Shown here piece after piece: positions 25,245-45,453 of a stretch of DNA of 60,548 nt (position 1 is the first letter of the stretch; each line of letters begins with the position of its first letter). The notes beneath the pieces are model-generated. The model saw only the letters and a list, made by a program, of their open reading frames with translations. It did not search any database and was not told where the DNA came from. A program made the translations under genes and the position numbers. Location of the stretch: positions 1-60,548 of the forward strand of contig CAIUGT010000097.1 in NCBI GenBank assembly GCA_903898755.1. Reading direction: 5' to 3'. The DNA is from an uncultured bacterium. Its GTDB lineage: Bacteria > Planctomycetota > Phycisphaerae > Phycisphaerales > SM1A02.

Positions 25245-25301
25245 GACTTTTCAAAAAGTCGCAGTAGGTTCATTGCATGGTGGTTCCTAATCAAGGGAAC
25301 C
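25245..25301 (+). promoter_or_regulatory. Two inverted repeats upstream of the ECF sigma gene
   Basis: GACTTTT / AAAAGTC (25245-25260, 2-base loop) and GGTTCC / GGAACC (25282-25301, 8-base spacer) lie between the divergent pseudopilin and ECF sigma genes. The second lies just ahead of the ribosome-binding site. They could be operator sites or RNA hairpins in the 5' leader. A clear ECF-type promoter was not identified. Confidence 0.35.
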
Positions 25302-25324
25302 GCTTACAACCAGGAGGAGTGGAA

Positions 25325-25909
25325 ATGACCTTTCAATCAGGCGAAGAAGAGTGGGTTTTTATGTCGAAAGTTGCTTCAGGTGATGAAGCCGCAATCGCAG
25401 AGTTATACGATGCATTTGGAGCTTTAGTGTTCAAGTCCGCGCGCCAAGTTTTAACGCGCCGCGCCGAAGCCGAAGATGCCGTTCAGGAAATTTTTATCCA
25501 GCTTTGGAAGACGGCAGATCGTTTCGACTTCCGCAGAGCGCGATTGGTGACTTGGGTGATGTTGCTCACTCGACGTCATTTAATTGACAAACTGCGTCGC
25601 AAGAGTTCGCGCCCAGAAACGCTTGGTTTTGAAGCGGATAACAGCAGTTTTAAGCAAATGAATGAGCGTTCCAACCACGCAGCTCAACCTATGGTGACTT
25701 CTGAAGGCAACAATGCAATTCGTGCCAAGATCGCTGAATTGCCTGAACTGCAACGTGAAGTCATTGAGCGTGCGTACATCAAGGGTCATACGCTTCGTGA
25801 AGTAAGTGAGCAGTTGAATGTTCCGCTTGGAACCATCAAAAGCGCTCTAAGCCGTGGCCTGGGTCGTCTGCGTGAACGCATGAGTGGTTCGACCGAAGAG
25901 ATAGCGTAA
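25325..25909 (+). CDS. ECF RNA polymerase sigma factor
   Basis: A 194-residue sigma factor of the extracytoplasmic-function type. Region 2 has ELYDAFGALVFKSARQVLTR, AEDAVQEIFIQLWKTADRFD and ARLVTWVMLLTRRHLIDKLRR. Region 4 has LPELQREVIERAYIKGHTLREVSEQLNVPLGTIKSALSRGL, the recognition helix. The layout matches SigK-like ECF factors that pair with RskA anti-sigma factors, and an RskA-like gene follows. ATG 25325 is chosen because AGGAGG stands ten bases upstream, one of the best ribosome-binding sites in the window; an in-frame GTG/ATG at 25277 was rejected. A strong terminator lies between it and the anti-sigma gene, so the two may be made at different levels. Confidence 0.92.
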   Translation: MTFQSGEEEWVFMSKVASGDEAAIAELYDAFGALVFKSARQVLTRRAEAEDAVQEIFIQLWKTADRFDFRRARLVTWVMLLTRRHLIDKLRRKSSRPETLGFEADNSSFKQMNERSNHAAQPMVTSEGNNAIRAKIAELPELQREVIERAYIKGHTLREVSEQLNVPLGTIKSALSRGLGRLRERMSGSTEEIA

Positions 25910-35309: not shown

Positions 35310-35645
35310 TTAAGTCTTAGGAACGGGGCGTTTCCAGCCAGATTCCGGGTCGCGCTCAAGCGTGCGTTTGGCTTGCGTGGAGCATGGCCGACACACTCGC
35401 GCTGTTGTTCGATCAGCCGGAGATTGCGCGGGAGCGGGCGCGCACCATGCGGGTTCCTTGCGCGCTTCAAGACACATTGTGCAAAGGTCGGAGCACGTGG
35501 GTTCAACATTGTTGCTTTCAAACGCATGCAACGCCGTGGTCAAGCATTGTCCACACAGACAACTGCCTTGGTGGCCTTCCACAAATGGTTGCGCGACAGT
35601 CCATGATCGTCCGCAGAAATCACAGAGAAAATCTTCCGGTTCCAT
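35310..35645 (-). CDS. Small Cys-rich putative zinc-binding protein
   Basis: A 111-residue protein with four CxxC-type pairs: LCDFCGRSW near the start, CLCGQCL, CTMCLEA and CRPCSTQA. The pattern suggests two treble-clef or ClpX-type zinc fingers, with FVEGHQGSC between the first pairs. It reads like a conserved planctomycete protein; I do not know a function. ATG 35645 is chosen as the residue before the conserved EPEDFLCDFCG part; an in-frame ATG at 35675 adds ten. It is divergent from the histidine kinase gene (68 bases) and converges with trmB. Confidence 0.68.
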   Translation of the reverse strand: MEPEDFLCDFCGRSWTVAQPFVEGHQGSCLCGQCLTTALHAFESNNVEPTCSDLCTMCLEARKEPAWCAPAPAQSPADRTTARVCRPCSTQAKRTLERDPESGWKRPVPKT

Positions 35646-35713
35646 TTGGTCGCTATTTGATCCAGGTCGATGCATGATGACAGAATACGCACGCCCGCTA
35701 TGCTTCGTGCAAC

Positions 35714-37258
35714 ATGGCGAGACTGAGTCTCACTCAACGAAGTCAACTTGTCATGGGCGCGGTCACCGCGCTGGCGATCACCGGCGCCCTGGCTATTCCG
35801 TGGATTCAAATTCGCGAGTCCATGGTGGCGCAACAATTGCAAAGCATGCGCGACATTTGCGCGGTGTGGGCCAAGAAACCCGACAGTTCAATGGAGCGAT
35901 TTCGATTTGTGAAAGGTTCCAATGCGCAGGCTGCCGCGGGCGATCCGTTTCTTGCAAGCGCATTCGATGAGTTCGCCGCCACTCCCGCGAATTTTGATCG
36001 TTTCGAATTGCAACAAGATAGTGACGCGCCAATATCTCGCTATGTCCGCGCGTTGCGTGGAGATCAAGCGGATCGTGTCGCGGCGGGCGAGGCCATTTCG
36101 TTAGACGCGCCCGACGTGGCGTGGCAGAAGTTGCCGTTGACTGGAGTTTTTTCCATCGAGCGCTCCGGAGTTGGCGCGGCGCGTTTGATTTGGCAGGATC
36201 GAATTTATATTTTGATTGGTGGCGGATTGGCTTGGCTTGGAATTCTTTTTGCCGTGCGTCTTCTTGTGGTGCGCGGATATTTGCGCGCGGTCCGTCGCTT
36301 GCGCGATGTGGCCAACCGCGTGCGCGCCGGCGATCTTTCCAGCCGCAGTCAGTTGCGCACGGGGGATGAATTGGAGCAACTTGGCAATTCATTCAACGCC
36401 ATGGTTGCCACTCTTGATGGAAGCCAAAAACAATTGCAAAGCATGAATGAAAGCCTGGACTTTAAATTGGTTCAGTTGAGCGAGGCCAATGTGGGTTTGT
36501 TTGAAAGCAACCGATTGAAGAGCGAATTCTTGGCCAATGTTTCACATGAGTTGCGCACACCGCTGAACAGCGTGATTGGATTCGCGGAATTGCTGGCGGA
36601 GTTGGCGCGCAAGGATGTGGCCGCGGATCCGAAGCGTATTCGTTACATCGAGCATATTTTAAAGAGCGGTCGAGGCTTGCTTGAGATGATCAACGAGCTC
36701 TTGGATATGGCAAAGATAGAGGCGGGTCGCATGGAACTGAGCGTTTCCAACGCCAGTATCACCGACATGCTTGAAGGCATTTCCGCCATCATGCGCCCTC
36801 AGGCGGATATGAAAAAAATCACGTTGGAGATTCATCGCCCTGATGAATTGCCCACCGTTGAAACAGATCCTGGAAAGTTGCAGCAAATTTTGTACAACTT
36901 TGTGAGCAACGCTATTAAATTTTCACCCGAAGGTTCTCGCGTGATTGTCCGCGCCGATTTGTGGGCCGTGGATGGCGCGCCTGGAATGCGGATGACCGTT
37001 GTGGATAGCGGGCCTGGAATTCCGCTGGACATGCAGCAAACGATTTTTGAAAAGTTTCGCCAAGTGGATGCAAGCCATACAAAAAGCCATGGCGGCACTG
37101 GTCTTGGATTGGCTATTTGCCGTGAATTGTCCGCCATGTTGGGCGCAAAACTTGGGATTGAATCCAATTCCAAAAAGGGTTCAAGTTTCTGGGTGGAAAT
37201 GCCGCTGGAATTCCGAGCAAAGAAACTGCCGCCGCTTATGGCTGATCGCGCTGGATAA
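35714..37258 (+). CDS. Sensor histidine kinase with HAMP domain
   Basis: A 514-residue membrane kinase. TM1 (about 12-32) and TM2 (about 165-187) enclose a periplasmic sensor of about 130 residues that I do not recognise. A HAMP domain follows (about 186-240, VANRVRAGDLSSRSQLRTGDELEQLGNSFNAM). The H-box FLANVSHELRTPLNSVIGF holds the phosphate-accepting His278. The ATPase part has NFVSNAIKFSPEGS (N box), VVDSGPGIP (G1), FEKFRQVD (F) and GGTGLGLAICREL (G2), so it should be active. There is no response regulator next to it, so it is an orphan kinase in this window. Its 3' end overlaps the convergent gene at 37236 by 23 bases. Confidence 0.93.
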   Translation: MARLSLTQRSQLVMGAVTALAITGALAIPWIQIRESMVAQQLQSMRDICAVWAKKPDSSMERFRFVKGSNAQAAAGDPFLASAFDEFAATPANFDRFELQQDSDAPISRYVRALRGDQADRVAAGEAISLDAPDVAWQKLPLTGVFSIERSGVGAARLIWQDRIYILIGGGLAWLGILFAVRLLVVRGYLRAVRRLRDVANRVRAGDLSSRSQLRTGDELEQLGNSFNAMVATLDGSQKQLQSMNESLDFKLVQLSEANVGLFESNRLKSEFLANVSHELRTPLNSVIGFAELLAELARKDVAADPKRIRYIEHILKSGRGLLEMINELLDMAKIEAGRMELSVSNASITDMLEGISAIMRPQADMKKITLEIHRPDELPTVETDPGKLQQILYNFVSNAIKFSPEGSRVIVRADLWAVDGAPGMRMTVVDSGPGIPLDMQQTIFEKFRQVDASHTKSHGGTGLGLAICRELSAMLGAKLGIESNSKKGSSFWVEMPLEFRAKKLPPLMADRAG

Positions 37259-37550
37259 AGAGGCGGCGAATTTGCGCGTCGGCGTTGGCATCAATTCGCC
37301 GCGCCAAACTTGCATCAATACGGTTGGTGAGTTGTTGCGGTTGCGCGTTGGCGATCAACCAACGCAACACGGTTTCCGCCACAAGTGAGGGCTCGGTTCC
37401 GCCGTCTGGACAGAGCAAATCATAGTCCGCCCAATTCAAGCCAATGGTCATTTTTCGAAGCGTTCCACTTTCCTCAATGAATTGCGCATTGAATTGCCAG
37501 CCATGACCGACTTCGGTTTCATTCATGATTTCAAGTGGTCCGTGAAACAT
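37236..37550 (-). CDS. Small hypothetical protein, last gene of four-gene operon
   Basis: A 104-residue protein of unknown function. It is mostly strand-like at the start (MNETEVGHGWQFNAQFIEESGTLRKMTIGLNWADYDLL), then helical (SLVAETVLRWLIANAQPQQL). A charged end follows (RRIDANADAQIRRLF). No signal peptide. It begins 9 bases after the MFS gene, on the same strand, and overlaps the end of the histidine kinase gene. The composition looks like a real protein and the spacing supports it. Confidence 0.6.
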   Translation of the reverse strand: MFHGPLEIMNETEVGHGWQFNAQFIEESGTLRKMTIGLNWADYDLLCPDGGTEPSLVAETVLRWLIANAQPQQLTNRIDASLARRIDANADAQIRRLFIQRDQP

Positions 37551-37559
37551 GGATGGAGG

Positions 37560-38831
37560 TTAACGGATGAAGGTGGTGGATGGACTGACAACTTCAACCA
37601 CCGCACGCACGCGTGCTGGTCGCAGCCATAAGACACCCAAGCGCAGCATGCCCGAAAGAATAAAGATGATCACATACGCGCCGCCAGAAGTGTCCATGCA
37701 TTTGAGAATGTATGCGCCAATGAATGAGCCAGCCGCGATTGAAAAATAAGTTGTGAAGTTGTAGAGCGCCATCATGGACGTGCGTTCCGAATGCTTGATA
37801 CTTTCAAGAAGAACCAAGAATGAGGCGAGTTCCCATGCCGCCCACATCACACCGCTATAGACCTGTACAAATGTGATCCACGCCAAATTGGTTGACACAG
37901 CCAGCATGAGAACGCCAAGCGCCGTGCCAGCGGTTCCAATGAGCAGCACGCGCCTGGCGCCAAATTTTTGAATGATGCCACCAAGCAAAGTGAGCGCCAA
38001 ACATTTTGAGCCAAAAAGCGTGCAAATAACAAGCAAATACGAGGCCTTGTCGAATTTTAAATAATCCAGAAGCCATGGATTCACAAATGGACCGCTGACA
38101 TTCGCTGCAAATTGCAAGGCGATGAGGCAAAGCACGATGCGCAGATCTCCACCGCGACCAAGGCGCTTGGGCAACAGTCGATAATGAACGCGCGCAATGT
38201 CGGTTGGATTCAACTTGACATCGCCTTGATGATGAAGGAACCACACGCTGGACAGGCGAGCCAGCGCAGCGAAGATCATGATCCACATGAACGCCTTGAG
38301 TTGCCAACCGTCGCGCTCGCCCAAATACAGAAGACCGCCCGCCGCAAGCATGGCGGTGAGTTGTGAAATTTGGCAAATACGATTTCGTTTGCTGAAGTAG
38401 CTAGCGCGCAGCGACTCTGGAAAAAGCCGAGCCACCCAAGTGCTCCACGCGGGCCACGCGCCAATCGCGGCGCTCCAATAAATAGAGAGCGTGACAAACA
38501 CCAACCATGTTGGAATCTCTCCGTATGCGGCGGCGATGATTAAAGGAATAAATGAAATGGCTTGCACAATGGCGCAGCCTTGGATCCATTTGCGCGGAGA
38601 GCCAACGCGGCGCAAGCCGGCGGGAGAAGCGAGCTGCACTGTGGCGCCAACCAACATTGGAATAGTGATGATTAACCCCGCAATAAGCGGGCTTTTGCCC
38701 AACGCCAACACCAACGCGGCGATATAGGTTTCACCCGCGCCCACCATGAAACAGAAGGTTGCGCCATCACCCGTGCATGCGTTGAAATCGCGGCGCGTGG
38801 GAAGTGGATCAGGTATCGAATCGTCAGCCAT
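37560..38831 (-). CDS. MFS transporter
   Basis: A 423-residue membrane protein with about 12 hydrophobic helices in two halves. Seen are YIAALVLALGKSPLIAGLIITIPMLVGATVQ, the loop LASPAGLRRVGSPRKW between helices 2 and 3 (the place of the MFS signature), and a second half starting with IVLCLIALQFAANVSG. The N-terminal residues (about 1-20) are cytoplasmic. The substrate is unknown. Its ATG follows the stop of the STN-like gene directly (TAA then ATG), so it is the third gene of a tight operon. Another MFS gene at 43738 belongs to a different branch. Confidence 0.85.
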   Translation of the reverse strand: MADDSIPDPLPTRRDFNACTGDGATFCFMVGAGETYIAALVLALGKSPLIAGLIITIPMLVGATVQLASPAGLRRVGSPRKWIQGCAIVQAISFIPLIIAAAYGEIPTWLVFVTLSIYWSAAIGAWPAWSTWVARLFPESLRASYFSKRNRICQISQLTAMLAAGGLLYLGERDGWQLKAFMWIMIFAALARLSSVWFLHHQGDVKLNPTDIARVHYRLLPKRLGRGGDLRIVLCLIALQFAANVSGPFVNPWLLDYLKFDKASYLLVICTLFGSKCLALTLLGGIIQKFGARRVLLIGTAGTALGVLMLAVSTNLAWITFVQVYSGVMWAAWELASFLVLLESIKHSERTSMMALYNFTTYFSIAAGSFIGAYILKCMDTSGGAYVIIFILSGMLRLGVLWLRPARVRAVVEVVSPSTTFIR

Positions 38832-39671
38832 TTAACGCGTCGGCTTGCTTGTGGGTTGGATATTGGTTCGCACGATGTTGCTGCGCGCAATAGCGCGGTG
38901 CACAAAATCTGGCGCGATCACAATGAGTTTGTCGTCGAAAATAGAAATGGTGCAGGGACCGCCTGAAGATTCCGCCCACACATCACTTTCCACAGTTGAT
39001 TGAATGAGTAATTTTATTTTTTGATAGCGAGCCTCATTTTGCGAGGGTGTAAATGGTGGACTTGTTGTGCTGCCTGAACTTCCGCCTGAACTGCCTCCTG
39101 TATTGCCGCCACTTTGCAATGGTGGCGCTTGAAAGTCTGGCGCCTTGAAACCAAGATCCGTGATGGAGTATGCGCGACGCTCCAACGCGCTCGCTCGAAG
39201 CAAGCGCGGCTTTGGACCAACTTCAATTCCACCAGCGGTTGTTTGCCAACAACATTCGCTTTGCGTGGCATCGCTTGCTTGGCGCAGAACAAGCTCCAAA
39301 ATAGTCCGCGCCGTCGCCTGTTTGCATTCAAGGTCAATGGTGATAGCGGGGTCAATGCCGGCGGAACCAACGGGTTGATCTTGCAACAGAATCTGAATTG
39401 GAACGCCTGTTTTTTGGGCGATTGTGGTCAGGGCTTGAACAATTGGAACTTGCTGGAACGCCACCGTGAAACGCTTCGCATCAAGCGTTGCGACCCAGCG
39501 ATCGCGGACCGCATCATTCTGTGGAGCGTTCTGCGAAGTCAAGGCCAATGCATTGGGACAGATCAAAATCATGACGCACACGCACGCAAGAAGCGTGGCG
39601 CGCAAAATTGTGCAGTTGAGGCACGAATTAAATCGCATGATTTTTATTTTACGGCAAACAGGAGTAGCCAT
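38832..39671 (-). CDS. Secreted protein with STN/secretin-like domain
   Basis: Up to 279 residues. An N-terminal hydrophobic segment (LRATLLACVCVMILICPNALA) acts as signal peptide. Then RFTVAFQQVPIVQALTTIAQKTGVPIQI and TIDLECKQATARTILELVLRQAS follow the pattern of the STN/secretin N domain. A Gly/Ser-rich linker (GGNTGGSSGGSSGSTT) precedes a last domain with IKLLIQSTVESDVWAESSGGPCTISIFDDKLIVIAPDFVHRAI. This layout recurs in planctomycetes. It has no secretin barrel. The start is either ATG 39671, one base after the upstream stop, or ATG 39638 (residue 12). Second gene of the operon. Confidence 0.75.
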   Translation of the reverse strand: MATPVCRKIKIMRFNSCLNCTILRATLLACVCVMILICPNALALTSQNAPQNDAVRDRWVATLDAKRFTVAFQQVPIVQALTTIAQKTGVPIQILLQDQPVGSAGIDPAITIDLECKQATARTILELVLRQASDATQSECCWQTTAGGIEVGPKPRLLRASALERRAYSITDLGFKAPDFQAPPLQSGGNTGGSSGGSSGSTTSPPFTPSQNEARYQKIKLLIQSTVESDVWAESSGGPCTISIFDDKLIVIAPDFVHRAIARSNIVRTNIQPTSKPTR

Positions 39672-39672
39672 A

Positions 39673-41502
39673 TCAATTATTTTTCAAAGATGGCTCGCCT
39701 GCAAAAAGTTGGCGGGCTTCAAGAATGGCGAGCAGGGTGGTTGCGTTCGCTCCGAGAGGTTGACTGCTATCCCATGGCGCGGCGCGAATGCCACCAAGCG
39801 CTTTCCCCGCGTCACGAAATGCGTAGCACGATGCTTGATCAACTTGAAGCTGCTTCAGAAATCGAAGCGCCAACTTGAGAGACTCCAAATTGACATCATT
39901 TGCATTGCCAAAAAGTGTGGGGTTCATGGCCAGCGCGAAGGTAAGGGCGGGGCGGGACGATTGTGCCGTTGCGCCAGTCACGCCATTGGTGATGATGGGC
40001 CAGCCTCCTTCAAGATCAACAGCGAGATCGGGATCGGATTTCTGAGTGAGTTGATTTTCAACAAGCATGATTTGTAGCAATTTCCAAGCCTCTTTGGCGG
40101 TCGACAGGTCGGACGATTTACCAACTCGTTGCTGCGCCAACAGAAGCCATGGACTGGCAGAGAGCAACTTATCAACGGGCCGAATTTTCCACGCGTCCAT
40201 AAGACCCTTGGCGACCTCGTTGGGTAAGTCCTGCGCTAACGCCGCCGCGCACAAAGCCCATGTCTGCAAATCAGCGCGTTGATCAAGTTGAAATTGTTCC
40301 AACACTTTGGCTTTCAATTTTCTTTGCCACTCATCGCATTCTGGATTTCCCCATGCGATGACGCAATGATTCAATGATTGACAGGCAAGAAGGCACGCGG
40401 CGGCGGCGGCTGGATTGTCAAGAGGATTTTTTTCTTCATCGACCACTCGCTGCAACGATTGCAATGTGGTGATGGCAAATGCCCGCGCCGCAAGCCGGTC
40501 TTTCTCTGAAAAGTTCATCTCTGAAAATCGCGCCATGGCGAACGCGCTCATGCCTTGCTCCAGCGGCGAACACACTTGCTGCGTCATTGACCCAAGCGCG
40601 GGTTGATATTCGCCCGCGGGTCCAAGCGCTTGAAGCGTGTCAAGAGTCTCAGGTGAAAGGCCATCTGTATTTCGAATGCGGCTTTCAAGATGTGTCGCGA
40701 TGGCCACGGCCATCTGGTCGAGCGTTGTGGCGGTGATGTCCGAAAGCGGCACGTTCACCATGCCACGAGAGACTTCAAACGCAGCATCTTTTGCCGTGAT
40801 TTGCGCCATCCTGCGCGTGTCGGCCCGGTACACGACCACGCCTTGTGGCAACTGAAATTTTTTGTCGGCGCCCGCTTCCACTCCAACATCGCGCGCCATG
40901 ACCACCATGGTGTACCACGGCAAGCGTGTTTGATTGAGTGATTGTTGCAGCGATGGCAATGAGAACGCCCATTGATCACCGGCGCGAATGGCCATGGCTT
41001 GGCGAGCGTTGTCAACCTTTGACGCAAGCACATCAACTCGATCCCCGGAGAATGGACGAGTCTCTCCAACAAGCTCAATTTCCAGCGCGAGTTCTTGCGG
41101 AGCGTTGGCGCGCAGGTCCGCTGGAAGCGCACAAAGAACACGGTCGTTGTTGGCCTGGCGCAACGCGTTTAAAAGCGCCGCGGCAAGACACAGTGAGCTA
41201 TCAGGATTTTGTTTCACCCACGCCTGACCAACAGGCCTGCCGTTCAATCGCAACACAACGCCAGCGGCTGTGGCGGAAAATGTTGGTGAAAGCGCAACGT
41301 CTTTGGAAAAATCGGGTGCGGCGGCATCAAATGGTGTCTTGAAACTTTGCTGGTCAAGCCACTTGCGCGACGCTTGAAAGAGCGTCCGCGCGTCGGCGGT
41401 GGAACAAAGATCCGCCTGCGCGGGCGTGATAACCGTGACGGCCGTGATGAAAATGGCGCATAGAAAGAAGATTTGTCTGTACACAATGCGAAACGGCGTC
41501 AT
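39673..41502 (-). CDS. Large secreted protein of unknown function (possible AMMECR1-like plus helical domain)
   Basis: A 609-residue exported protein with a signal peptide (FFLCAIFITAVTVITPAQA). The first half (about 30-260) has LSPTFSATAAGVVLRLNGRPVGQAWVK, CLAAALLNALRQANNDRVL, LALEIELVGETRPFSGD and LPWYTMVVMARDVG. This order recalls the AMMECR1 fold, but the identity is low and the usual RGCIG motif is missing. The second half (about 310-600) is helical with repeated pairs (AARAFAITTLQSLQRVVDEE, PALTFALAMNP, LKLALRFLKQLQVDQ), like an alpha/alpha toroid. ATG 41502 is chosen for the signal peptide. It heads the operon 41502-37236. No enzyme function can be claimed. Confidence 0.72.
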   Translation of the reverse strand: MTPFRIVYRQIFFLCAIFITAVTVITPAQADLCSTADARTLFQASRKWLDQQSFKTPFDAAAPDFSKDVALSPTFSATAAGVVLRLNGRPVGQAWVKQNPDSSLCLAAALLNALRQANNDRVLCALPADLRANAPQELALEIELVGETRPFSGDRVDVLASKVDNARQAMAIRAGDQWAFSLPSLQQSLNQTRLPWYTMVVMARDVGVEAGADKKFQLPQGVVVYRADTRRMAQITAKDAAFEVSRGMVNVPLSDITATTLDQMAVAIATHLESRIRNTDGLSPETLDTLQALGPAGEYQPALGSMTQQVCSPLEQGMSAFAMARFSEMNFSEKDRLAARAFAITTLQSLQRVVDEEKNPLDNPAAAAACLLACQSLNHCVIAWGNPECDEWQRKLKAKVLEQFQLDQRADLQTWALCAAALAQDLPNEVAKGLMDAWKIRPVDKLLSASPWLLLAQQRVGKSSDLSTAKEAWKLLQIMLVENQLTQKSDPDLAVDLEGGWPIITNGVTGATAQSSRPALTFALAMNPTLFGNANDVNLESLKLALRFLKQLQVDQASCYAFRDAGKALGGIRAAPWDSSQPLGANATTLLAILEARQLFAGEPSLKNN

Positions 41503-41580
41503 GGTGACCAATGTAGCGGAGCCGTTTGAATTGACGTATTTCATTCAAGCGGCTCCGACTAAGCATTGCCAGACTTGACC

Positions 41581-41670
41581 ATGAACTATTTCCGCCAAAA
41601 CAATGTTCAACGCGCGCATCTGAAACGGATGATGTTGCTTGTCCTTGTGGGCTTCATCGCCTTGTGCTGA
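41581..41670 (+). CDS. Candidate 29-residue membrane peptide
   Basis: A short frame ATG...TGA lies in the gap between rpsA and the secreted-protein gene. It encodes MNYFRQNNVQRAHLKRMM followed by LLVLVGFIALC. The basic residues ahead of a hydrophobic C-terminus would fit a small inner-membrane protein. There is no good ribosome-binding site and no promoter I can defend. The bidirectional terminator at 41737-41768 would end its transcript. Chance occurrence is possible. Confidence 0.3.
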   Translation: MNYFRQNNVQRAHLKRMMLLVLVGFIALC

Positions 41671-43737: not shown

Positions 43738-45132
43738 TCATGCTTGCGGCAACGCTTGCGCTTGGGAATCGCTGACCAATGTGGTTTTTCTGAGCCGTTT
43801 GCGCGCGCGGCGCATGTGGACAAATCCCCACGCGCCGACGGCGTTGACGACCAGGCACACAAAGAAACTCCACGCGCCAAGGTTGTGGCCTTTGAGCCAC
43901 TCGTACAAACCCACCGCGAGAAATGGCGCGATCAAACCGCGAATGCCGTTCAGTGTGACATGCACGCCCATGTATTCCGCGTCCCGCTCTGGCGGCGCGA
44001 AATCTTGGTGGCCCAAATTCCAGGCCAAACTTCCGCCGGCAAAACCAATTCCAAGCAGCGCGCCGGAAATATAAAACAGCGGCATGGATTTGGCCAGCGC
44101 CGCGATAAAAATCAGCGCGGCCGCGGTTACAAATGTCCACGCGTGGATGGCGCGGAAATCAACCACATGCGAACGGTCAAGCCGCCGCGCCCAAAATGGA
44201 ATGGCCAGCGGCATGATCAACAACGGAATCACGGTGGTCACCAAAATTCCTTGCGCATACGTGGCGTTGAGTTCGTCTTCCAACACAATGGCCAGCGGCG
44301 CTGAGATCATGAGATTGCCAAGACCAAACACCGACATCCACAACATGAATCGCGCGTAGGGTGGATCTTGTTTCAACACGCGCAGCACGGAAGTTGGATT
44401 CAGTTGCGGACCGCTGCGCTTGGGAGCGGCTTGCTCCGCGCGCAGCAATCTTTTTTCTCCGCGCATGGGAACGCGCCGCCACAAAACATTTCCAGCGATG
44501 CCGAGCACGGCGAGCGCGGGAAACAGAATGTGGAAACTTTTGGAGTTGAAGTCCATGGCCGCGCCAATGGCCCAGCCGCACAGCGCCAACACCAGACTTT
44601 GCACGGTGGCCATATTTCCAGCGATTTTGGCTCTGATTTCGCGCGGATAGTTGGCGCGCCAAACCGCGGAGCGCAGCGTGATCACGCCTGTCCATGTAAT
44701 GCGCGCCAGCGTGGCCAAAATACAAAGCGTCCACAAACCCCAGCGTTGCTCAGGCATAAGCGCGATGGAAGCCACGCATACCGCGGTCATGGTTTGCAGC
44801 GACGCGATGTACGCCACCTTTGGTTTTCCTTGCGAGTGCGCGGCCCAAATAAAACTGGTCAAGTTCGCAACATTGGGCGCGGCCGTGACCAACGCCACCG
44901 CCAGATTGAGTTCCGTTGCACCAATGCCTTCAATGCCACTGAATGTTTTCTTCACCACCACGCCAAGGGTTCCGCCTTCAATGGCGCCCAGAAAAAACGG
45001 CAGAAAGGCCCAGCTTAGAATTTCATTGATGTACGCCGGTCGGGACATGGGCGGCAAGTGGCGCGGATGAAAACGCGAGAAAAAACCTTCGGATGTTCTC
45101 GCGTCGCGTTTGATTTCCGTGGGTGCGTTCAT
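43738..45132 (-). CDS. MFS transporter
   Basis: A 464-residue protein with about 12 membrane helices. Blocks seen are EILSWAFLPFFLGAIEGGTLGVVV, a helix 2-3 loop with FIWAAHSQGKPKVAY, IRAKIAGNMATVQSLVLALCGWAIGAAMD and, in the second half, FMLWMSVFGLGNLMISAPLAIVLED. Residue pairs at the cytoplasmic loops are basic. The substrate is unknown, and no resistance or sugar motif stands out. The start is uncertain: ATG 45132 gives a 28-residue polar extension, while ATG 45048 starts right before the first helix. It is separated from the HIT gene by 321 bases, so it may have its own promoter. Confidence 0.83.
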   Translation of the reverse strand: MNAPTEIKRDARTSEGFFSRFHPRHLPPMSRPAYINEILSWAFLPFFLGAIEGGTLGVVVKKTFSGIEGIGATELNLAVALVTAAPNVANLTSFIWAAHSQGKPKVAYIASLQTMTAVCVASIALMPEQRWGLWTLCILATLARITWTGVITLRSAVWRANYPREIRAKIAGNMATVQSLVLALCGWAIGAAMDFNSKSFHILFPALAVLGIAGNVLWRRVPMRGEKRLLRAEQAAPKRSGPQLNPTSVLRVLKQDPPYARFMLWMSVFGLGNLMISAPLAIVLEDELNATYAQGILVTTVIPLLIMPLAIPFWARRLDRSHVVDFRAIHAWTFVTAAALIFIAALAKSMPLFYISGALLGIGFAGGSLAWNLGHQDFAPPERDAEYMGVHVTLNGIRGLIAPFLAVGLYEWLKGHNLGAWSFFVCLVVNAVGAWGFVHMRRARKRLRKTTLVSDSQAQALPQA

Positions 45133-45453
45133 CCGATTTGCCAAGCATAGGCGGATGAACTTGTGTTCAAATGCATTTTCTATTTTCGGCTCTTTGCCCC
45201 GTCGGAGGAACAGAAATAAATTCTGTCGCTTCACAAGGAAGCGCTCTCTGACGATGTTGCCCGAACCCCGCATTCACGTGGGTTCCCCGGCCATCGTTCC
45301 CGATCTTCCACGCCGCGCGAACGCGAGAGGCATGATCATTGACGCAGCCATTAAGTAGGGATCCCTAGGGGTTCGCATCGGTCCGGACGCGTGGTCAAAG
45401 GTCACCCGACGGGGCAAAGAGTCGAAGGCCCAAGTCTACGCATGAAATGCGGC
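45133..45453. other. Gap without a confirmed gene; possible small ORF
   Basis: This 321-base stretch between the HIT and MFS genes holds a plus-strand frame 45254-45358 (34 residues, MLPEPRIHVGSPAIVPDLPR and on). It looks protein-like but has no ribosome-binding site and no recognised match. It also has a 10-bp palindrome AGGGATCCCT at about 45357-45366. I found no tRNA, SRP, tmRNA or RNase P signature in it. Confidence 0.3.

What the first reader, a model, noticed from the sequence alone, without database searches (positions are those of the whole stretch)
37236..41502. Very tight four-gene operon with no known function
Seen: four minus-strand genes with gaps of 1, 0 and 9 bases: a 609-residue secreted protein, a secreted STN-like protein, an MFS transporter and a 104-residue protein. 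Such spacing normally means co-translation and joint function. The mix of two secreted proteins and a transporter suggests uptake or processing of some envelope or external compound. This is inference; none of the four has an assigned role.
Basis: partly seen in the sequence, partly recalled or inferred. Interest (0 to 1): 0.6.

Follow-up and report, generated by a model that had tools for sequence, protein, structure and literature searches.

The report
Periplasmic gene pair beside conserved microprotein
Four neighbouring bacterial genes read as one operon are really an old, conserved pair of exported proteins joined in this lineage to a transporter and a small protein, and just upstream lies a 29-residue membrane-type microprotein gene whose relatives occur across the whole bacterial class and nearly always end in a cysteine.

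Summary
The four minus-strand genes are real and tightly packed, but the first gap is probably 34 nt, not 1 (the STN-like gene likely starts at 39638). Across the order only the first two travel together: adjacent in 38 of 54 genomes that have the first. The MFS gene joins them in this genus and three other genera. The 104-residue gene joined only in this genus; relatives keep a PMT_2-like glycosyltransferase gene (and, outside the genus, often a MacB/LolC-type gene) in between, and that glycosyltransferase is missing from this genome. So the last gap is secondary.

Gene 1: exported protein with an AMMECR1-like domain lacking the LRGCIG cysteine, plus an (alpha/alpha) toroid. Gene 2: exported secretin N0 and probable N1 domains without the pore. 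Most likely a periplasmic accessory of a secretin-type envelope machine (inferred).

Unexpected: a 29-codon ORF (41581-41670, +) divergent from gene 1, ending [RK]-12 uncharged-C-stop. It lies upstream of gene 1 in 55 of 61 order loci and nowhere else in those loci. Relatives occur in about 96 of 150 genomes of the class and in none of about 166 other phylum genomes. It evolves as coding sequence. A palindrome with a compensatory change separates it from gene 1.

The parts
41581..41670 (+). 29-aa microprotein ORF MNYFRQNNVQRAHLKRMMLLVLVGFIALC*, divergent from gene 1
   Evidence: HMM match E 1.4e-14 in own genome, next to gene 1 in nearly all order genomes; motif scan and controls; pooled pN/pS 0.42 in the genus; class-wide, not seen outside the class
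41517..41557 (.). Inverted repeat (15-nt arms, 93% complementary, 11 nt between) between the microprotein ORF and gene 1; unique in the genome
   Evidence: conserved in L149, L151 and, more diverged, L154; both arms changed in step in L151 (GAGCCG/CGGCTC to GAGTCG/CGACTC); not recovered in L148
41737..41768 (-). Terminator-like hairpin after the S1-domain gene: upstream boundary of the block
   Evidence: same element in L146, L148, L149, L151
39673..41502 (-). Gene 1 (called TOR here), 609 aa: signal-like N-terminus, AMMECR1-like domain, alpha/alpha toroid
   Evidence: the ATG at 41502 is conserved in relatives
40792..41283 (-). AMMECR1-like domain, residues 74-237; LRGCIG motif replaced by RPVGQA
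   Evidence: hhalign E 4e-6, prob 87%; Foldseek best hits 1zq7, 1vaj, 1wsc, the best at E 1e-5
39685..40749 (-). (alpha/alpha) toroid domain, residues 252-606
   Evidence: VIA-align Z 22.6, 270 residues, rmsd 3.0 to GH105 4xuv; epimerases and terpene cyclases nearly as good
38832..39638 (-). Gene 2 (STN-like), 268 aa from M12; first ATG at 39671 gives 279 aa. N0-like residues 66-157, Gly/Ser-rich linker, N1-like residues 209-263 (279-aa numbering)
   Evidence: Foldseek best hit XcpQ N0-N1-N2 5ngi E 1.3e-4; N0 of PilQ, XcpQ and others at Z 8-10; start choice
37560..38831 (-). Gene 3, MFS transporter, 423 aa
   Evidence: PF07690 E 4.8e-19, above cut-off; next to gene 2 in the genus and three other genera
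37236..37550 (-). Gene 4, 104-aa protein of unknown family; joined to the block only in this genus
   Evidence: no Pfam or NCBIfam match; relatives in 51 of 61 genomes, position varies
37551..37559 (.). Site where relatives carry a ~560-aa PMT_2-like glycosyltransferase gene; absent from this genome
35714..37258 (+). Convergent histidine kinase gene (HAMP-HisKA-HATPase), overlapping gene 4 by 23 nt; neighbour, not part of the unit

Best explanation
The conserved unit is a periplasmic pair, not a four-gene operon. Gene 1 makes an exported two-domain protein: an AMMECR1-fold domain that has lost the family's LRGCIG motif, so it probably binds rather than acts as an AMMECR1 enzyme would, and an (alpha/alpha) toroid, a fold that commonly holds glycans or isoprenoids. 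Gene 2 makes an exported secretin N0 plus probable N1 domain without a pore. The most likely working model is that the N0 domain docks the pair to the inner-membrane side of a secretin-type machine or a similar envelope complex, where gene 1 handles a glycan-, lipid- or protein-type cargo. The MFS and 104-aa genes are later additions to the transcription unit, the latter joined by loss of intervening genes. The palindrome between gene 1 and the divergent microprotein ORF is most simply a shared operator or a 5'-leader hairpin. Shown here: gene structure, conservation, fold assignments, loss of the Cys motif, the missing glycosyltransferase gene, microprotein conservation. Inferred: export, docking, cargo, regulation.
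For: Genes 1 and 2 adjacent and co-directional in 38 of 54 genomes with gene 1 (counted); gene 1 found by profile in 24 of 25 sampled genomes of the order. AMMECR1 fold by structure and by profile comparison; one gene-1 relative (G052) also meets PF01871 by sequence at E 2.7e-4, below its cut-off. Toroid fold. Secretin N0 by structure, and gene 2 resembles residues 556-673 of the genome's own 1075-aa secretin protein, which carries PF00263. Gene 4 separable and the ~560-aa gene missing here.
Against: In several families and one genus of the order genes 1 and 2 lie apart (G037, G040, G042, G044-G046, G048, G050 and others), and two genomes of the window's own genus lack gene 2 near gene 1 with no clear copy elsewhere (G001, G013), so they are not an obligate complex. 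The genome's secretin gene lies among housekeeping genes, not beside this locus. No interaction, localisation or expression data. The gene 1 model is only moderately confident (mean pLDDT 73.6, pTM 0.64), gene 2 less so (68.7, 0.58), mainly in linkers.
Confidence: 0.4

Rival explanations
1. Functional four-gene operon for uptake or efflux: exported proteins capture or process an external compound and the MFS protein moves it across the inner membrane.
For: Tight spacing, gap 0 between genes 2 and 3 conserved in near relatives; MFS retained beside gene 1 even in the two genomes that lost gene 2 (G001, G013).
Against: In most genomes of the order outside this genus the MFS gene is absent or at another locus, and gene 4 is not in the unit outside the genus.
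Confidence: 0.15
2. Gene 1 is an active envelope enzyme, for example a glycan hydrolase, lyase or epimerase, and gene 2 a cell-wall or complex anchor; the linked PMT_2-like gene in relatives would supply a sugar-modified partner.
For: The toroid matches GH105, cellobiose 2-epimerase and GH76 folds; strongly conserved polar residues Q484, D496, R517, R547, Q551 in the toroid; PMT_2-like genes downstream in relatives.
Against: Terpene cyclases and several sugar enzymes match about equally, so the fold does not pick a chemistry; no known catalytic motif was tested; the PMT_2-like gene is dispensable (lost in three genomes of the genus).
Confidence: 0.2
3. Gene 2 is a signalling STN domain, as in TonB-dependent transducers and their anti-sigma partners, so the pair is a sensor that reports envelope state rather than part of a secretion machine.
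For: VIA-align also places PupR/FpvA-type signalling domains and an anti-sigma domain at Z 8-10, tied with secretin N0.
Against: The N1-like second half and its similarity to the genome's own secretin fit secretins better; no anti-sigma gene or receptor lies nearby (searches show a sigma factor at 25277-25909, about 13 kb away, with no link tested).
Confidence: 0.15
4. The adjacency of the microprotein ORF and gene 1 is inherited synteny without functional meaning; the microprotein serves a separate class-wide role.
For: In other orders of the class it lies beside unrelated genes: FtsY-type GTPase and NAD epimerase, DNA ligase, TPR and ferredoxin genes, an aminotransferase.
Against: Divergent placement held in 55 of 61 order loci across six families while other neighbours reshuffled; palindrome between them with a compensatory change.
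Confidence: 0.45

Closest known systems
AMMECR1 family (PF01871)
   Same: Domain fold and full-length profile alignment over residues 74-237
   Different: LRGCIG motif (named as invariant in PMC5502304) replaced; exported and fused to a toroid; below the Pfam cut-off; canonical AMMECR1 not found in this genome or in the 25 sampled genomes of its family
Secretins GspD/XcpQ/PilQ (PF00263), N0-N1 region
   Same: N0 fold and probable N1; similarity to the genome's own secretin
   Different: 279 aa, no secretin pore domain; Gly/Ser-rich linker between the two halves; separate gene
(alpha/alpha)6 toroid enzymes: GH105, cellobiose 2-epimerase, GH76, type II terpene cyclases
   Same: Overall fold, Z 18-23 over 250-300 residues
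   Different: 7-16% identity; several chemistries match equally; no sequence match to solved structures
Bacterial lipoprotein signal peptides (for the microprotein)
   Same: Basic stretch, 12-residue uncharged run, then Cys
   Different: Residue before Cys is L, M or I in 60 of 60 sequences, not G/A/S; the protein ends at the Cys; a few relatives lack the Cys (G046 ends ...FIALM, G129 ...FIVLL)

Membership tests
AMMECR1 (PF01871) | AMMECR1 fold | tested here: met
   Foldseek 1zq7 E 1e-5, probability 1.00; hhalign prob 87, E 4e-6
AMMECR1 (PF01871) | LRGCIG motif with its cysteine | tested here: not met
   Aligned to RPVGQA; Cys position variable in all 18 aligned members; motif described in PMC5502304
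AMMECR1 (PF01871) | Score over the Pfam cut-off | tested here: not met
   Window protein has no PF01871 match; best gene-1 relative 21.2 bits against 25
Secretin (PF00263) | N0 domain | tested here: met
   Foldseek 5ngi E 1.3e-4; N0 of PilQ and XcpQ at Z 9-10
Secretin (PF00263) | Outer-membrane pore domain | tested here: not met
   No PF00263 match in any of 17 members; too short
STN signalling domain of TonB-dependent transducers | STN/N0-type fold | tested here: met
   FpvA, PupR matches Z 8-9
STN signalling domain of TonB-dependent transducers | Fusion to a TonB-dependent barrel or partnership with an anti-sigma protein | tested here: inconclusive
   No fusion; no such gene in the scanned neighbours, but partners elsewhere in the genome were not searched
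(alpha/alpha)6 toroid enzymes | Toroid fold | tested here: met
   Z 22.6 to 4xuv, 270 residues
(alpha/alpha)6 toroid enzymes | Catalytic residues of any one family | not tested
   Conserved polar residues listed, not mapped to an active site
MFS (PF07690) | Score over the Pfam cut-off | tested here: met
   68.9 bits against 33.4
Lipoprotein signal peptide (for the microprotein) | Small residue (G/A/S) before the Cys | tested here: not met
   L 42, M 17, I 1 of 60
Lipoprotein signal peptide (for the microprotein) | Lipidation of the Cys | not testable with these tools
   needs mass spectrometry or labelling

The most novel reading that the evidence does not exclude
The ORF at 41581-41670 encodes a member of a so far unrecognised class-wide family of ~28-residue inner-membrane microproteins with an obligate C-terminal cysteine, [RK]-12 uncharged residues-C-stop, and in this order it works with, or is co-regulated with, the exported gene 1/gene 2 pair across a shared palindromic control region.
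Probability: 0.45. Interest if true: 0.7.

Novelty: new variant of a known kind. Interest (0 to 1): 0.5.

Why it matters
Planctomycete envelopes are poorly understood. If right, this gives a lineage-wide periplasmic pair built from two known folds in an unusual setting (an AMMECR1 fold outside the cytoplasm and without its hallmark motif, and secretin N-domains without a secretin), and a microprotein family that can be tested directly because its end, basic-12-Cys-stop, is so regular. It also shows that tight spacing alone overstated an operon: one of the three gaps arose where another gene is missing.

Tried and rejected
Porphobilinogen deaminase match to gene 1 (E 0.0044, below cut-off, 1 of 18 members): chance or fold-level noise. 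PLD-like match to gene 2 (E 0.25): rejected. PDB hits of the gene 2 profile to antibodies and other Gly-rich chains: low-complexity linker artefact. Selenocysteine at the microprotein's stop: rejected, because TGA, TAA and TAG are all used. Microprotein as a leader peptide for a downstream gene: unlikely here, because it runs convergent to the S1 gene. Relatedness of the MFS gene to the second MFS gene at 43738-45273: not supported. Plasmid relatives of gene 1: none found. Literature searches on AMMECR1 architectures, Phycisphaerae small proteins, Cys-ending microproteins and stand-alone N0 domains gave nothing on these families in the open-access library; most subscription papers are not held. 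No solved-structure sequence relatives for genes 1 and 4.
Full report
Naming. Gene 1 = 39673-41502 (609 aa, TOR), gene 2 = 38832-39638/39671 (STN-like), gene 3 = MFS 37560-38831, gene 4 = 104 aa 37236-37550, all on the minus strand. The window is a whole 60,548-base contig (G000:C97) of a 2.59-Mb draft genome. Records found by gene 1 in a public collection, which coincide with genomes of the same genus, are lake or freshwater-type MAGs, one titled Phycisphaerales and several Planctomycetota; that the class is Phycisphaerae is inferred from this.

Observation. The four ORFs exist and have homologues. The gap between genes 1 and 2 is 1 nt only if the first ATG of gene 2 is used; near relatives start at the equivalent of its twelfth codon, giving 34 nt here. 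Genes 2 and 3 abut with no gap, here and in near relatives. Genes 3 and 4 are 9 nt apart. For gene 1, the ATG at 41502 is conserved in relatives whereas the upstream one is not. The S1 gene upstream ends in a terminator-like hairpin, so the block probably starts its own transcript; no promoter match was above chance.

Conservation. Gene 1 was found in 54 of 61 relatives by single sequence and by profile in 24 of 25 sampled genomes of the order (my count of the listing), thinning to 45 of 150 across the class sample. Gene 2 lies directly downstream in 38 of the 54 (counted by hand); it lies elsewhere in several families and one genus (for example G037, G040, G042, G044-G046, G048, G050), and no clear copy was found in G001 and G013 of the window's own genus. 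Gene 3 sits beside gene 2 throughout the genus and in three other genera of the family, elsewhere it is absent or distant. Gene 4 has relatives in 51 of 61 genomes, but outside the genus a ~570-aa PMT_2-like gene and often an oppositely oriented MacB/LolC-type gene stand between, or it is on another contig. The PMT_2-like gene is found in most genomes of the genus but not in G000, G015 or G009, whose genes 3 and 4 are adjacent. Because G003, closer to the window in gene 1 than G009 is, has the gene, at least two losses (or a loss and a regain) are likely. The four-gene spacing is therefore partly secondary.

What the proteins are. Gene 1: a model from a 12-sequence alignment has mean pLDDT 73.6 and pTM 0.64. 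Its best PDB matches are the structural-genomics proteins 1zq7, 1vaj and 1wsc (1e-5 to 6e-4); that these are AMMECR1-family proteins is my own knowledge, and it is confirmed here by profile comparison with six (five usable) canonical AMMECR1 proteins from the same order: residues 74-237 align end to end, probability 87%, E 4e-6, with LRGCIG against RPVGQA. One gene-1 relative also meets PF01871 at E 2.7e-4, under the cut-off. Residues 252-606 form an (alpha/alpha) toroid, Z 22.6 to GH105 and nearly as high to cellobiose epimerases and terpene cyclases, so no chemistry is indicated. Gene 2: the model (pLDDT 68.7, pTM 0.58) matches XcpQ/GspD N0-N1-N2 best; on re-alignment the N0-like part fits PilQ, XcpQ, anti-sigma and TonB-receptor signalling domains at Z 8-10, with some phage and injection-system baseplate proteins equally high, so the secretin reading rests on the N1-like half and on similarity to residues 556-673 of the genome's own 1075-aa secretin protein. 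Gene 3 is an MFS transporter. Gene 4 has no known family.

The divergent microprotein. On the plus strand at 41581-41670 lies MNYFRQNNVQRAHLKRMMLLVLVGFIALC, found while reading the region upstream of gene 1. Similar short ORFs lie divergent and upstream of gene 1 in family and order loci. A motif scan of 61 order loci found it at gene 1 in 53, and nowhere else in 1.08 Mb counting both strands; the same scan gave none in 3.78 Mb of mononucleotide shuffles. The pattern was shaped on these sequences, so the shuffle count is a specificity check rather than an independent test. Two of the eight scan misses do have it (G032 fails the basic-residue rule; in G028 the ORF is cut by the contig end but is complete on another contig end), giving 55 of 61; in G037, G042, G046 and G050 a relative lies elsewhere and does not align through the last position (the one read, G046, ends FIALM), G129 has it in place but ending in Leu, and G048 has none found. 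Within the genus pooled pN/pS is 0.42 over the last 20 codons with third positions most variable; pairs are not independent and pS is near saturation, so this is indicative. In 60 distinct sequences Cys is always last (those were chosen for ending in Cys), K/R stands at -14 in 59, F/Y at -5 in all, and L/M/I precedes the Cys in all. Across the class about 96 of 150 genomes have a match at E below 0.01 running to the last position (hand count), in other orders beside unrelated genes. In a phylum sample, none of about 166 genomes outside the class had a match reaching the last position. The alignment used was built from class members, so more distant relatives could be missed.

Control region. 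Between the microprotein ORF and gene 1 lies an inverted repeat, 41517-41557, unique in the genome. It recurs in L149 and L151 and, more diverged, in L154; L151 carries matched changes in both arms; it was not recovered in L148. This supports selection on pairing or symmetry but does not tell a protein-binding site from an RNA hairpin.

Interpretation. The best-supported picture is an old exported pair with a divergent, independently conserved microprotein, to which gene 3 and then gene 4 were added locally. That the pair serves a secretin-type or other envelope complex is inference from fold and presumed location, held at 0.4. Whether the microprotein belongs to the same function is open.

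Noticed in passing
window 41581-41670 (+): 29-codon ORF ending in Cys, conserved across the class; the most unusual feature near the finding.
   Followed up: yes
window 41517-41557: Long inverted repeat between the microprotein ORF and gene 1, unique in the genome, with a compensatory change in L151.
   Followed up: partly
window 35310-35675 (-): 121-aa ORF between the histidine kinase and TrmB-type genes; its relative in L117 has a weak ClpX C4 zinc-finger match and is conserved in ten loci.
   Followed up: no
window 43738-45273 (-): Second MFS gene, upstream of the S1 gene, conserved in position in many family loci, not related to gene 3 by BLAST.
   Followed up: partly
L185 (G046): Relative of the microprotein that ends in Met instead of Cys (FIALM), away from gene 1; profile matches in G037, G042 and G050 likewise stop one position short.
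   Followed up: partly
L228:536-3760 (-): 1075-aa secretin-domain protein of this genome with a Gly-rich stretch like gene 2's, lying among housekeeping genes rather than secretion genes.
   Followed up: partly
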